Positions 7,814 through 14,141 of a stretch of DNA of 20,333 bases are shown one piece after another (position 1 is the stretch's first letter; each line of letters begins with the position of its first letter). The position numbers and the translations under genes were made by a program. Origin of the DNA: a virus. A model generated the notes under the pieces. It saw only the letters and a list, made by a program, of their open reading frames with translations, had not been told where the DNA came from and ran no database searches. The stretch spans positions 1-20,333 of IMG/VR virus record IMGVR_UViG_3300021137_000527. One strand, written 5' to 3'.

Positions 7814-7821
7814 TATTTATG
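7814..7821 (-). promoter_or_regulatory. Late-promoter-like octamer CATAAATA upstream of dnaJ
   Basis: The minus strand reads CATAAATA, one mismatch from TATAAATA. It includes the stop codon of the holin-like gene and abuts the sigma70-like -35 box, so dnaJ-clpA might be transcribed both by host polymerase early and by a late phage-modified polymerase. Placement at a gene junction supports it; the short motif in AT-rich DNA weakens it. Confidence 0.35.
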
Positions 7822-8557
7822 AAGCTACGCCGGCAACCTTTTCTTTTGTTCTACCGTATGCTGCGATACCTAGAACTGCACCCATTGCAATGTGATACAA
7901 TCCGGCACCCTGTAATGTCAATGGTTGCCATTGACTAGTTACGTTACCATGTGTCATTGCTTGTAACACTGACCATAAGATCGGGAACAATACAAAGTCG
8001 CAAGTACATGTCAACATGTAGATCCAACCCATCATCGGGCGCATCTTTTTGTTAATCCAGTCAGTAGCATCTTTGTCTAATTTAACAGTAGATTCGCCGC
8101 CTTCACTCATTGCGCCGCCACCTGACTTTAATGATTCACCTTGATTTTGAACTGATTGGAAAGAACTTTGTTGCATTCCACCACTCATCCCACCTGACGC
8201 GCCGAAACCTGTTGATCCAGTTGAAGCTGCTCCAAATCCAGGTGAAGCTCCGAAACCGCCTGCTGTTGCTGACGTTGATGCTCCGAAAGAGTTGGACGTT
8301 GCTGAACCGAAACCTGAGGAGCTGCCAAAGCCTCCTGCTGAACTTGTACTTGTTGTTGATCCGAATCCACTTGAAGACCCTCCGAATGTACTTGTGCTTG
8401 CTGCTGTAGTAGATGTAGCTGGCGTTGTTGAACCAAATGCACTTCCTGATGGAAATGCACTAACTGTGGGATCACTTGCTAATACATCATGGTGATCGTC
8501 ACTCTTTGCTATCGCATTGTCAGTTGTACCTGACTTCTGTGCTAGTAATGTTGCCAT
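7817..8557 (-). CDS. Holin-like membrane protein with FG-repeat N-terminal region
   Basis: This 246-residue protein has two contrasting halves. Residues about 35-125 are a Gly/Ser/Thr/Ala/Phe low-complexity region with nine FG dipeptides (seven after residue 60, as in SSSGFGS and GGFGAS), resembling FG nucleoporin repeats. After a polar linker, residues 164-246 form a small membrane domain: basic WINKKMRP, a hydrophobic segment at about 177-200, TSQWQPLTLQGAG, a second hydrophobic segment at about 214-234, and a basic end. This C-terminal pattern resembles holins of the gene-transfer-agent/T4-like marine phage type, which form lysis pores in the inner membrane. GCAGGAT lies just before ATG 8557. 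It sits far from the endolysin. A virion membrane role cannot be excluded. Confidence 0.6.
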   Translation of the reverse strand: MATLLAQKSGTTDNAIAKSDDHHDVLASDPTVSAFPSGSAFGSTTPATSTTAASTSTFGGSSSGFGSTTSTSSAGGFGSSSGFGSATSNSFGASTSATAGGFGASPGFGAASTGSTGFGASGGMSGGMQQSSFQSVQNQGESLKSGGGAMSEGGESTVKLDKDATDWINKKMRPMMGWIYMLTCTCDFVLFPILWSVLQAMTHGNVTSQWQPLTLQGAGLYHIAMGAVLGIAAYGRTKEKVAGVAS

Positions 8558-10729: not shown

Positions 10730-10754
10730 AAAAGGGGCATTAAGCCCCTTTTTT
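10728..10754. terminator. Bidirectional rho-independent terminator between convergent genes
   Basis: A perfect 11-bp stem (AAAAAAGGGGC pairing with GCCCCTTTTTT) with a five-base loop spans 10728-10738 and 10744-10754. Both strands read a GC-rich stem into a T run, so it can stop phoH transcription rightward and the clamp-loader unit leftward. It overlaps the phoH stop codon and the stop codon of the 84-residue gene. Confidence 0.92.
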
Positions 10755-11007
10755 ATTCCTGTGAAGCCTCTGCTTCTAATCGTTCAATGATTGAAGTATA
10801 AATAGGTTGGTAGTATCCATATAATCTATCCCAATCTTTATTCAGAATCAACCCGTCAACAACACACTTGTTAACTACTTTATCTTTAAAGTCCATAATG
10901 ACATTGCAAGTGGTAATGTCTCGTTCACGAATCTTTTTACTAACTTCTACTTGTTCGTCAATTTGACCATTTGGTTTTCTAATATATGTTATAAGTAAAT
11001 ATCTCAT
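10753..11007 (-). CDS. Small protein downstream of the clamp loader (84 aa)
   Basis: This protein starts MRYLLITYIRKPNGQIDEQV and has a mixed alpha/beta look with a central CNVIMDFKDKVVNKCVV strand pair and a C-terminal amphipathic helix (IIERLEAEASQE). Small proteins of this style occur in T4-like marine phages beside replication genes, but I cannot give a function. It takes the place where T4 has gp62, the small clamp-loader subunit, yet is less than half gp62's length and shows no motif to identify it. It overlaps the gp44-like gene by ATGA and ends in the shared terminator, so it is the last gene of the unit. Confidence 0.7.
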   Translation of the reverse strand: MRYLLITYIRKPNGQIDEQVEVSKKIRERDITTCNVIMDFKDKVVNKCVVDGLILNKDWDRLYGYYQPIYTSIIERLEAEASQE

Positions 11008-11930
11008 GTTGTTAACTCTATAAGTGTTGCTGCTAGTGATATCTCTGGGATACCAACTAGGCTTAAGTTTGCCAATCCATTACGAATAGTAATGATACTA
11101 GCGTCTTTCTGTTCTTGTGTGCTACCCCACAATGCTAAATTATTATACATCCACTTGTACACATCTTCAATGCGACTTGGATACAAACTCAAATATTGTA
11201 ACAGTTGTTGACGACCGTCAAGTACTTTACCATTCTTGAATAGTTGTGTTGCTTCAATTAACAAATCGTGCTCACTACTTGTTTGATTTGCGGGTGCTAT
11301 TAATGTACCTGTACTACTATTTACTTGAAGTTGATTCAAACACTTACGTAAGTCTGGATAACTACCACCAACATATGTGTCAAGTACATCTAACTCAAAG
11401 TCAATGTTTTCACTTACTAATACAGTTGCTGCCCGTGCAGTAAACTCAGTTTTATCTGGTTTGGCAATATGTAGTTTGTGACAGCGACTTTCACGCAATG
11501 CAGGAATTACACGATGTTCATAGTTACAAGTAAGAATGAATCGTGCGGTCATACTATATGCTTCCATATCATTACGCAATGCTGCTTGACCTGCTGGACT
11601 TAGATAATCAGCCTCGTCTAACAATACGATTTTGAATCTACCAAAAGGCATTGTTTGAACAAACCCATTGATTTTATCTCTAACAGTATCAACACTATTC
11701 TCACGACTTGCGTTGATTTCCATTACGTCATATTCATCAATACCCAATTCTTTAATAAGAACTTTAGCAAGTGTTGTTTTACCAGTACCCGGTTCACCGC
11801 TCAATAACAAGTGAGGGATCTCACCTTGCTTGATCCAACTTTCTACTTGTTCTTTTTGACGTTGGTCAACAAATACGTAACCATCAATACTGTTCGGGCG
11901 ATGTTTCTCGACCCACATGTTGTTTTTCAT
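11004..11930 (-). CDS. 44: Sliding-clamp loader large subunit (T4 gp44-like)
   Basis: This 308-residue AAA+ ATPase matches the RFC/gp44 clamp-loader ATPase: MWVEKHRP at the N-terminus, Walker A GEPGTGKT at 45-52, Walker B LLDEAD with DEAD at 105-108, sensor-1 LTCN (133-136) and the arginine-finger motif SRC at 148-150. The C-terminal collar region (about 230-308) is helical. In T4, four gp44 with one gp62 load the gp45 clamp onto DNA, which also activates late transcription. No gp45 or gp62 homologue is recognised in this window. Met5 (MWVEKHRP) is an alternative start; the longer form is kept because its ATG overlaps the upstream stop as ATGA. Confidence 0.93.
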   Translation of the reverse strand: MKNNMWVEKHRPNSIDGYVFVDQRQKEQVESWIKQGEIPHLLLSGEPGTGKTTLAKVLIKELGIDEYDVMEINASRENSVDTVRDKINGFVQTMPFGRFKIVLLDEADYLSPAGQAALRNDMEAYSMTARFILTCNYEHRVIPALRESRCHKLHIAKPDKTEFTARAATVLVSENIDFELDVLDTYVGGSYPDLRKCLNQLQVNSSTGTLIAPANQTSSEHDLLIEATQLFKNGKVLDGRQQLLQYLSLYPSRIEDVYKWMYNNLALWGSTQEQKDASIITIRNGLANLSLVGIPEISLAATLIELTT

Positions 11931-12301
11931 CGTTTCAATGCTTCCAAAGTCATAATTTTAGCAAGTTCTGTGCCTAAGTCAAGATCACTTGGGATAAGAT
12001 GTAATGCTTGATCGTGTGTGTCTTTCTTTTCATTGTAGTACATATATTCCACAATGTGTCCACCTGTTGCTGGGTAGATTTTGAAATGCATTGGATTTGC
12101 ATTTAAATTTACACTAGTGTCATCGGGGTTAACCTTTTGACCTGCAGTAGTAAAACGTCTTGAGGGTTTTGGACTTACTAGTCCAATATGTATACCACTT
12201 GCTGCTTTACGTTGTTCCCTGTCAACAGTATCTTCTTCTTCCCGTTTTTGTTGTTGAGCTTGGTGTAAGCCATTAAAAATCCAATTAAAAAACCATTTCA
12301 T
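11927..12301 (-). CDS. Hypothetical phage protein (124 aa)
   Basis: The frame is open to 12436, but the extra residues overlap the co-chaperonin gene and look like noise. ATG 12301 has TAAGG about nine bases upstream and begins right after the co-chaperonin stop, giving MKWFFNWIFNGLHQAQQQ. The N-terminus is a short aromatic amphipathic helix (1-15) that could touch membrane, followed by a charged Gln/Glu/Lys region (15-35) and a strand-rich C-terminal domain (MHFKIYPATGGHIVEYMYYN) with a His/Asp-rich end. No family is recognised. It overlaps the clamp loader by ATGA. Confidence 0.65.
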   Translation of the reverse strand: MKWFFNWIFNGLHQAQQQKREEEDTVDREQRKAASGIHIGLVSPKPSRRFTTAGQKVNPDDTSVNLNANPMHFKIYPATGGHIVEYMYYNEKKDTHDQALHLIPSDLDLGTELAKIMTLEALKR

Positions 12302-12302
12302 G

Positions 12303-12671
12303 TTATGCCTTATCTGATATTGTTTCATCATCCATCGGTTCATCCGATACAATGAGTATATCATTAGGATCCACTCTACGCAATGTCTTTTTACCCTCTT
12401 CGTCTTCAATATCAATACCACGAGTCCAACGACCATGACTTACCAAAATGTATTGACCTTCTTGCAAATCACCCGTATACTCAGGACCAAACTTGTAGAT
12501 TTTACACCAACGCGGTCTGATACCTGCACTCTTGGCATCATCTTTAAGCAAAATTAATCCTGAACGAGTTCTACGTTCATCAAATTTCATTTCGGTAACT
12601 ACAATCCAATCTTTGATTGGTTTAAGTTCGTCTTTATTGACCTTATGAGGTTCAAATGCTAATTTTGTCAT
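12303..12671 (-). CDS. GroES/gp31-like co-chaperonin
   Basis: This 122-residue protein fits the GroES fold used by phage co-chaperonins such as T4 gp31. DWIVVTEMKF (21-30) matches the first strand. ERRTRSGLILLKDDAKSAG (32-50) takes the position of the mobile loop, whose hydrophobic tip (GLILL, compare GGIVL in GroES) binds GroEL. CKIYKFGPEYTGDLQEGQYILV (56-77) matches the VxxVGxG...VkxGD part. The C-terminus is acidic. T4 gp31 replaces GroES for folding the major capsid protein, so the same role with a host GroEL is likely. It overlaps the upstream gene by ATGA and precedes the 124-residue gene by one base. Confidence 0.75.
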   Translation of the reverse strand: MTKLAFEPHKVNKDELKPIKDWIVVTEMKFDERRTRSGLILLKDDAKSAGIRPRWCKIYKFGPEYTGDLQEGQYILVSHGRWTRGIDIEDEEGKKTLRRVDPNDILIVSDEPMDDETISDKA

Positions 12672-12988
12672 TTCTTTTTAGTTTCCTTAACTACTGGTTT
12701 GACTGGTTCTTCCTGATCCAAATCTTCAAACATTTGTTGTTCTTCTTTGGATAAATCTGCTTCCAACGGTGGTTGTGTTTGTTGCATGTGAGAAGGAGTA
12801 TATTGCTTAACCGTTCTATTATATGCTCCAGCAACACTAGCATTTCTGTTCTGAATAACTTTGTTATTGCTATCTACCACGTCGCCACGAGCATTAACAC
12901 CCATGTTACCTACTGCTCTAACCTGTTCATTCTTTTTGACAAGAACGGACATGTCCACCATTTTACCCTGTGCTGATCTGTATGCCAT
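12668..12988 (-). CDS. Hypothetical phage protein, basic N-terminus and acidic C-terminus (106 aa)
   Basis: The protein opens MAYRSAQGKMVDMSVLVKKN, followed by VRAVGNMGVNARGDVVDS, a pattern I associate with a small conserved protein of T4-like marine phages, though I cannot name it. The middle is Gln/Thr/Pro-rich and probably disordered; the end is acidic (KEEQQMFEDLDQEEP) then Lys-rich. No enzymatic motif is seen. TAGGAG five bases before ATG 12988 is a good ribosome-binding site and includes the stop codon of the DnaE-like gene. Its stop overlaps the co-chaperonin start by ATGA. Confidence 0.68.
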   Translation of the reverse strand: MAYRSAQGKMVDMSVLVKKNEQVRAVGNMGVNARGDVVDSNNKVIQNRNASVAGAYNRTVKQYTPSHMQQTQPPLEADLSKEEQQMFEDLDQEEPVKPVVKETKKK

Positions 12989-12996
12989 ACTAACTC

Positions 12997-13503
12997 CTAT
13001 TTTAAAAATTCATCTATGCTTAAGTCATAGAATATACTATTTACTCGGTGTATGCCTATCAGATACAATACATAACTGGCTACACTAGACCCTCTACCTA
13101 CACCCCAAACAATGTTATTTTTACGCATTGTATCAACGAGGTATTTACAGTAACAAAGTAATGAGAATAAGTCACGATCCTGATACAATAGTAATTCTTC
13201 TCCCACACGCTGAAGTTCATAATCTTCTTTACATTGAGCAAGAACCCATGCAGCAATATCCATGTTCTTATATTCAGTGGGCATGTACCAATTGTCTTGG
13301 TTTATCTTGTCAAATTCTTCAACAGTGATGTCCAAACTATGGTATTTATTTAGTATAGGTATGTTCTCAAGTTCAAGTATTGGGTCAAACTTGATTTCTT
13401 TTTCAATCAATGCGTTATTGATTTTGAAGTCTGGATCACGAAGGAATGCTAAGAAAATGTCTTCTTCGCTTAAAATTTGTCTACCATAGATATCATTCTT
13501 CAT
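12997..13503 (-). CDS. Stand-alone DnaE-like GRGS palm fragment (168 aa)
   Basis: Residues about 110-168 match the region of bacterial DNA polymerase III alpha around its nucleotide-binding loop: LFSLLCYCKYLVDTMRKNNI, then GVGRGSSVASYVLYLIGI (134-151) and FYDLSIDEFLK (158-168). These correspond to the helix before VGPGRGSAAGS and the YDLLFERFL segment in DnaE. The protein stops before the position of the catalytic DxD aspartates and has no PHP domain, so polymerase activity is unlikely. It may be a regulator or a domain reused in replication. The first 100 residues are acidic and unfamiliar. The stop is clean TAG and I see no continuation in another frame nearby, so it looks like an intact small protein. 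ATG 13503 has no Shine-Dalgarno. Confidence 0.75.
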   Translation of the reverse strand: MKNDIYGRQILSEEDIFLAFLRDPDFKINNALIEKEIKFDPILELENIPILNKYHSLDITVEEFDKINQDNWYMPTEYKNMDIAAWVLAQCKEDYELQRVGEELLLYQDRDLFSLLCYCKYLVDTMRKNNIVWGVGRGSSVASYVLYLIGIHRVNSIFYDLSIDEFLK

Positions 13504-13541: not shown

Positions 13542-14141
13542 TTATTTGTCCAGTTTGTCAAAGTTTACAAACACAACTTCACTTTTATTTTTTGTTTTGG
13601 GTTTGTCATTCCATTCCAAATCAAACTCTGTCCATTCAAAGTTCTTTTTAGTTATCTTGATGACTTTTTTGTTTTTCAATTTAACGTCAGTTAGTATAGG
13701 ACTGTTGTCGTCCCACCATCCACCCACGTTGAATGGGCCTATATTATCTTCTAATGTATGGAAACAAGTTACACCATCACTTAATCTACTAGTGATAGAT
13801 ATGTCAGTGATGACCAATCTACCCTCTGCAATTGCATTGAGTTTCTGCATCAACATGATACCAATAATTTGGTCATACGGATCTTCCGGCAATGTACAAA
13901 CACGCAAGTCTGCATCAATCAATTTATCAATTGTTTTGGTATCTGTTTCACATACAAAAATACAATGCTGGAGGCAATAATCTAAAAAGTATTTGATGCG
14001 TTCTAGTGCTATGTTTTGTTCTTCAATAGATTCTGTTTCTACATTTAAGTAGGCATCAAATTCATATAGATTTGAATAGAACTCTGAACCAAAGTGTACT
14101 CCGGCTAAAAAGTCAAAACTTCGTTGAATCTTAGCTGTCAT
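13542..14141 (-). CDS. Hypothetical phage protein (199 aa)
   Basis: No family is recognised. The N-terminal half combines helices and strands with several Cys (YCLQHCIFVCETD, LRVCTLPEDP). The middle has GPFNVGGWWDDNSPILTD at about 134-151, a Gly/Trp/Asp-rich loop that may bind a ligand. The C-terminal part is Lys-rich and alternates basic and aromatic residues. No membrane segment is seen. ATG 14141 overlaps the upstream stop by ATGA. It precedes the DnaE-like gene by 38 bases, with a possible promoter between. Confidence 0.65.
   Translation of the reverse strand: MTAKIQRSFDFLAGVHFGSEFYSNLYEFDAYLNVETESIEEQNIALERIKYFLDYCLQHCIFVCETDTKTIDKLIDADLRVCTLPEDPYDQIIGIMLMQKLNAIAEGRLVITDISITSRLSDGVTCFHTLEDNIGPFNVGGWWDDNSPILTDVKLKNKKVIKITKKNFEWTEFDLEWNDKPKTKNKSEVVFVNFDKLDK

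What the first reader, a model, noticed from the sequence alone, without database searches (positions are those of the whole stretch)
12997..13503. Small protein built from only the GRGS palm segment of bacterial DnaE
GVGRGSSVASY and the flanking helices align in motif order with the alpha subunit of Pol III, but the protein ends before the catalytic aspartates. A stand-alone, apparently intact piece of a C-family polymerase in a phage with T4-type replication genes is odd: it might bind NTP, compete with the host polymerase, or be a relic.
Basis: partly seen in the sequence, partly recalled or inferred. Interest (0 to 1): 0.65.

Follow-up and report, generated by a model that had tools for sequence, protein, structure and literature searches.

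The report
Half of a split phage DNA polymerase
This small phage protein is not a leftover: it is one half of a miniature bacterial-type DNA polymerase whose other half, carrying the metal-binding catalytic residues, is encoded by a separate gene elsewhere in the genomes of related giant phages, an arrangement already proposed in 2021 but, as far as I found, never tested in the lab.

Summary
The 168-aa ORF at 12997-13503 (-) matches the DnaE palm segment (PF07733, E 6e-9; phrog_11127, E 2e-38), keeps the GRGS loop and stops just before the catalytic aspartates.

"Stand-alone" is wrong. Large genomes with this gene also carry a second gene (phrog_11778, ~190-215 aa) that begins at the missing DxDxD and adds the third catalytic Asp (KxDxL), RPxK and the K-x-H fingers helix. 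On E. coli DnaE the N-half ends at residue 393 and the C-half's first Asp falls on D401. Both halves occur together in at least 60 phage records (one C-only record, partial) and in 16 of 22 large metagenomic contigs; the other six end before the usual partner position. The C-half usually lies 30-60 kb upstream on the same strand. Both genes are under purifying selection, and both AlphaFold models match bacterial Pol III alpha best. No fusion was seen.

Iyer et al. 2021 (PMC7824862) already proposed this split minimal Pol III alpha for "group 2.2" jumbo phages. The window is a new member of that kind, with sharper evidence. It is too short to contain its own C-half. Enzymatic activity is untested.

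The parts
12997..13503 (-). N-half (NTP-binding subunit) of a split minimal Pol III alpha, 168 aa, phrog_11127
   Evidence: PF07733 E 6.2e-9; phrog_11127 E 1.6e-38; length and end conserved in about 112 loci
13084..13107 (-). WGVGRGSS loop (residues 133-140), equivalent to E. coli DnaE GRGS 361-364; predicted triphosphate-binding loop
   Evidence: GRGS invariant in alignments A3 and A5; mapping; the block of residues 131-140 has the lowest AlphaFold confidence (64), as would fit a strand that needs a partner
13000..13011 (-). C-terminal EFLK, equivalent to E. coli DnaE ERFLN ending at 393; the split point lies directly after it
   Evidence: maps to 390-393; family members end here
13429..13482 (-). 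Residues 8-25, tentatively equivalent to E. coli DnaE from 238 on (EEEMCELFADIPEA)
   Evidence: hhalign with A5, E 8e-6 for the whole alignment; this stretch alone is weak and not recovered with A3
12668..12988 (-). Conserved downstream neighbour, phrog_14844, function unknown; syntenic in Paride, Atu_ph07 and GAP32; does not supply the missing palm
   Evidence: E 3.3e-8; synteny; no DxDxD downstream
12303..12671 (-). gp31/GroES-like co-chaperonin, syntenic neighbour
   Evidence: phrog_931 E 3.4e-13
11004..11930 (-). gp44-type clamp loader ATPase, syntenic replication neighbour
   Evidence: phrog_168 E 1.3e-69
13542..14141 (-). Upstream neighbour (199 aa), no family hit; a gene of similar size lies here in Atu_ph07 and Paride

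Best explanation
The ORF encodes the N-terminal subunit of a two-gene, minimal C-family (Pol III alpha / DnaE-type) polymerase of group 2.2 jumbo phages. It supplies the first part of the palm with the GRGS triphosphate-binding loop. A second protein of about 190-215 aa, encoded usually 30-60 kb upstream in related phages, starts at the catalytic DxD and supplies all three catalytic aspartates and a reduced fingers region. The two would assemble non-covalently so that the active site sits at their interface. Shown: homology of both pieces, complementarity of the split, conserved catalytic residues, co-occurrence, selection. Inferred: physical assembly, polymerase activity, and the presence of the C-half in this particular phage. 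Most likely role (inferred): a secondary polymerase working beside the family-B enzyme, for example extending primers or filling gaps, since the C-half gene lies next to primase and exonuclease genes and the N-half gene next to the clamp loader.
For: N-half. C-half found with the Pfam fingers model and confirmed in 9 of 12 N-bearing records at E 1e-61 to 1e-89. C-half motifs: DxDxD in 176 of 176 loci, KxDxL in 175, RPxK in 176, [KR][KR]xH in 173; GRGS in none; no fusion. C-half hits phage DnaE phrog_405 at positions 577-682 for one member, after the N-half's 365-429. Collinear in M. tuberculosis DnaE1 (5lew): N-half match ends at 406, C-half starts at 413. E. coli mapping: N-half ends at 393; C-half Asp 6, 8 and 71 match D401, D403 and D555 (and motif alignment). 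Co-occurrence: 60 phage records seen by accession to have both; the one C-only record (W12-3, 109.5 kb) is partial. Reverse test: 10 of 13 C-bearing contigs have the N-half. Purifying selection: closest pairs dN/dS about 0.05-0.1 for both. Foldseek: the nine best PDB matches of the N-model and the nine best of the C-model are all bacterial Pol III alpha, top probability 0.97-0.99. Genomic setting: C-half next to a primase, a DexA/Rv2179c-type 3'-5' exonuclease or a DnaB helicase; N-half next to gp44.
Against: The window (20.3 kb) does not contain the C-half, so the partner is assigned from relatives, the nearest at 66% N-half identity. The C-half scores below the Pfam gathering threshold (best E 3.3e-5), and Foldseek E-values are weak (0.01-0.4). 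DnaE thumb, much of the fingers, PHP, HhH, OB and clamp-binding parts are missing, so polymerase activity is not assured. No physical interaction has been shown or modelled.
Confidence: 0.82

Rival explanations
1. Decayed relic of an acquired DnaE gene without function.
For: The product lacks catalytic aspartates and most of DnaE.
Against: Same length and end in over 100 loci, invariant GRGS, dN/dS about 0.05-0.1 for the closest pairs, conserved synteny across PA5oct-, RaK2- and Atu_ph07-like phages, and a complementary gene in the same genomes.
Confidence: 0.02
2. Inhibitor or decoy that binds the host Pol III (for example its C-terminal palm, clamp or clamp loader) and shuts down or hijacks host replication.
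For: It resembles one face of the host palm. The phages have their own family-B polymerase, so host replication could be dispensable to them.
Against: The phages encode the exact complement with a full catalytic set, always in the same genomes; a decoy would not need it. N-half genes lie in replication clusters conserved across phages of unrelated hosts (Pseudomonas, Agrobacterium, enterobacteria, Vibrio).
Confidence: 0.06
3. Both halves assemble, but the enzyme is not a templated DNA polymerase: a nucleotidyltransferase with another job (template-independent addition, primer synthesis, nucleotide sensing).
For: All metal- and triphosphate-binding residues are retained, while thumb and most fingers, the template-handling parts, are collapsed: about 25 residues replace roughly 110 between the RP motif and KSH.
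Against: The fingers K-S-H-A-x-x-Y helix and the RP motif are kept; gene neighbours are replisome genes. A separate primase is encoded next to the C-half.
Confidence: 0.2

Closest known systems
Split minimal Pol III alpha of group 2.2 jumbo phages (Iyer et al. 2021, PMC7824862; phrog_11127 + phrog_11778; CBB_328, Atu_ph07 gp316, GAP32_323)
   Same: Same N-half family, same end before the DxD, partner encoded at a distance, family-B polymerase also present.
   Different: The window is from an uncultivated phage, about 42% identical to the nearest cultured relative in the collection searched (Paride). Added here: exact split point, co-occurrence counts, gene order, and structure matches for both halves.
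Bacterial DnaE / Pol III alpha (E. coli DnaE, Taq 2hpi/3e0d, M. tuberculosis DnaE1 5lew)
   Same: Palm with GRGS, three catalytic aspartates, RP and KSH motifs when both halves are read together.
   Different: About 360 aa in two proteins instead of about 1,160 aa in one; no PHP, thumb, most of the fingers, HhH or OB parts in the two halves.
Cyanobacterial split DnaE (trans-splicing split intein), from memory
   Same: DnaE encoded by two distant genes.
   Different: That split is in the fingers and is rejoined by a split intein; here the split is inside the palm and there is no room for an intein at either end.
Split T4-type family-B polymerase gp43A/gp43B of some Aeromonas phages, from memory
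   Same: A phage replicative polymerase made of two non-covalently assembled products.
   Different: Family B and a different fold; in general such split genes are neighbours.

Membership tests
Split phage Pol III alpha, N-terminal subunit (phrog_11127) | Sequence match over the family, with GRGS loop | tested here: met
   E 1.6e-38; GRGS invariant
Split phage Pol III alpha, N-terminal subunit (phrog_11127) | Ends before the catalytic DxD | tested here: met
Split phage Pol III alpha, N-terminal subunit (phrog_11127) | C-terminal subunit encoded in the same genome | tested here: inconclusive
   Met in all large relatives where the expected place is covered; the window is too short to test it for this phage
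Split phage Pol III alpha, N-terminal subunit (phrog_11127) | Family-B polymerase in the same genome | tested here: inconclusive
   Present in 11 of 12 relatives; not covered by the window
Split phage Pol III alpha, N-terminal subunit (phrog_11127) | Syntenic with gp31-like and gp44 genes | tested here: met
Full-length bacterial-type DnaE/PolC | Three catalytic aspartates in the same protein | tested here: not met
   ORF ends before DxD
Full-length bacterial-type DnaE/PolC | PHP domain and full fingers in the same protein | tested here: not met
   Only PF07733 23-94/260 is matched
Split-intein DnaE | Intein halves at the break | tested here: not met
   N-halves end 0-4 residues after EFLK; C-halves start within about 20 residues of DxD
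Active C-family DNA polymerase | Template-directed DNA synthesis | not testable with these tools
   Catalytic residues conserved; no assay

The most novel reading that the evidence does not exclude
A functional C-family polymerase whose active site is assembled from two separately encoded proteins, triphosphate loop on one and all metal ligands on the other, acting as a dedicated second polymerase beside a T4-type family-B replicase, possibly to extend primers, and the smallest known working version of the bacterial replicase fold.
Probability: 0.45. Interest if true: 0.75.

Novelty: new member of a known kind. Interest (0 to 1): 0.45.

Why it matters
If the pair is active, it is a C-family polymerase reduced to about 360 residues with the active site split between two proteins. 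That would show what the bacterial replicase core needs, would bear on whether the minimal form is ancestral (as Iyer et al. suggest) or reduced, and would mean that a large, widespread group of giant phages replicates with two unrelated polymerase families. In several GenBank records the second half is annotated as a hypothetical or membrane protein (for example GAP32, CBB, 7t3), so the pair is easily missed.

Tried and rejected
Single-sequence phmmer of the ORF against PDB gave nothing; profiles were needed. A DxD supplied by neighbours or by frameshift/read-through was rejected: no DxDxD in any frame within 600 nt downstream. A second weak PF07733 match in GAP32 (W03:56579, E 0.008) and a weak fingers match at W03:201372 are chance: they lie in a dCMP deaminase-like and a terminase-like ORF by their sequence. 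Rossellomorea phage phiT1 and other weak hits (E 1e-6 to 1e-2) were not counted as family members; phiT1 carries larger DnaE-type genes. No fused N+C gene was found. A C-half from the window's own sample (3300013093) was not among the listed loci (lists capped at 80). No DnaE-like sliding clamp (PF00712) was found in eight relatives. A deep DnaE/PolC tree to ask 'ancestral or reduced' was not attempted: too few shared columns and no balanced bacterial set at hand.

Full report
The ORF. Window 12997-13503 (-) encodes 168 aa from an ATG. It hits Pfam DNA_pol3_alpha (PF07733, E 6.2e-9, above the curated cut-off) over residues 96-167 and phrog_11127 'DNA polymerase', a 171-aa phage family (E 1.6e-38).

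The short form is the normal form. tblastn against 50,697 phage records finds 69 with a match, almost all jumbo phages: PA5oct/Paride, RaK2/GAP32/CBB/121Q-like, Atu_ph07, Phosso, SCTP-2, Vibrio 2.275, XacN1, CM1. The weakest hits are full DnaE-type genes in unrelated phages. IMG/VR gives at least 80 loci. Of 113 untruncated N-half loci (partly overlapping), 100 end exactly at EF[LIFM][KRENH]; all keep GRGS; the only one with a DxDxD is the unrelated phiT1 gene. Closest pairs have dN/dS near 0.05-0.1, with a median of 0.14 over pairs with finite dS. A relic is excluded. Gene order is shared with Paride, Atu_ph07 and GAP32: DnaE piece, phrog_14844-position gene, gp31-like gene, gp44 clamp loader.

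The missing half. Iyer et al. [quoted passage not shown] The CBB paper had noted the N-half as a truncated Pol III alpha. I looked for the second piece independently with the Pfam fingers model and found about 190-217-aa ORFs in Atu_ph07, GAP32 and a 385-kb IMG/VR contig. They begin at or just before DIDID, then carry KxDxL, RPxK and [KR][KR]xHaxxY. They match phrog_11778 and, more weakly, DnaE phrog_405; one member matches phrog_405 at 577-682, downstream of the N-half's 365-429. In 176 untruncated C-half loci DxDxD is present in all, KxDxL in 175, RPxK in 176 and [KR][KR]xH in 173; none contains GRGS.

Exactness of the split. On E. coli DnaE (L208) the N-half ends at residue 393 and the C-half's first aspartate aligns with D401 (the C-half alignment to a single sequence is weak by itself, P 0.0018, and the D401 assignment rests on the DxDxD motif). 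On M. tuberculosis DnaE1 (5lew) the N-half profile ends at 406 and the C-half starts at 413. The pieces are collinear, do not overlap, and together hold the catalytic residues named for DnaE from general knowledge: GRGS, D401, D403, D555. Reduced are the thumb region and the fingers between RP and KSH.

Co-occurrence. Comparing the listed accessions, 60 phage records hold both genes (59 in the two main lists plus RAS14). Alishewanella phage Slicko01 holds the N-half, and the tally counts two Alishewanella records with the C-half. The only C-only record, Klebsiella W12-3 (109.5 kb), is partial. Among IMG/VR contigs, 6 of 9 N-bearing contigs hold the C-half and 10 of 13 C-bearing contigs hold the N-half. 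In the six exceptions the contig ends before the place predicted from the usual spacing. The C-half lies upstream of the N-half on the same strand in the IMG/VR contigs, 13-59 kb apart (mostly 35-59), and 30-44 kb in Paride, GAP32 and Vibrio 2.275; the order differs in XacN1 and CM1, and the distance is over 100 kb in SCTP-2, Atu_ph07 and Phosso. The window's close relatives (G002, G003, G004, G005, G008; N-half 58-66% identical) all have it. The window itself has only about 7 kb on that side, so absence there means nothing.

Structure. AlphaFold models of the window N-half (mean pLDDT 89; 64 in the block of residues 131-140 that holds the GRGS loop) and of the G004 C-half (mean 92) were compared with PDB. 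The nine best matches of each are bacterial Pol III alpha chains (top probabilities 0.97-0.99, E 0.13-0.95 for N and 0.01-0.63 for C). The E-values are weak, but two independent queries converging on one protein family, with no other family near, is informative. The complex could not be modelled with the tools given.

Setting and role. A family-B polymerase is present in 11 of 12 relatives. The C-half gene sits with a Toprim primase and, in the window's clade (L210), directly downstream of a DexA/Rv2179c-like 3'-5' exonuclease; DnaB helicase and primase follow in Paride and XaC1. The N-half sits with the clamp loader. I infer a replisome component used beside the family-B enzyme, for example for primer extension or gap filling; this step is not shown. 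A non-templated nucleotidyltransferase remains possible because the template-handling parts are much reduced.

Verdict. Real, conserved, and already described in outline. I found no experimental test in the open-access library searched, which lacks most subscription papers.

Noticed in passing
W02 (Atu_ph07) 212336-213688 (-) and W01 (Paride) 88906-92683 (+): The family-B polymerase match is spread over two separate frames in both phages (418+578 aa; 825+379 aa), so the gp43-type polymerase may be split or intron-interrupted there too.
   Followed up: no
L210:3557-3979 (-) and same place in L099, L101, L102, L103-L107: A 120-140-aa protein with a WWW motif (phrog_11637, unknown function) lies convergent to the C-half gene, overlapping or abutting its 3' end, in nearly all genomes seen.
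   Followed up: partly
GenBank records of GAP32, CBB, 7t3, Muenster, SNUABM_47 and others: The C-half is annotated as 'putative membrane protein' or hypothetical protein, which hides the polymerase pair.
   Followed up: no
G007 (IMGVR_UViG_3300032288_004815) 22766 (+) and 94662 (-): The N-half gene occurs twice in opposite orientation with the same score on a 117.7-kb contig; probably a palindromic assembly artefact.
   Followed up: no
window 7817-8557 (-): A 246-aa protein rich in FG/GS/TS repeats with a hydrophobic C-terminal part.
   Followed up: no
window 11927-12436 and 12303-12671 (-): Two same-strand ORFs overlap by 134 nt; the start of the first is probably further downstream than listed.
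   Followed up: no
window 10753-11007 (-): An 84-aa ORF directly after gp44 with no confident family match may be the small clamp-loader subunit (gp62 position); CBB was reported to lack gp62.
   Followed up: no
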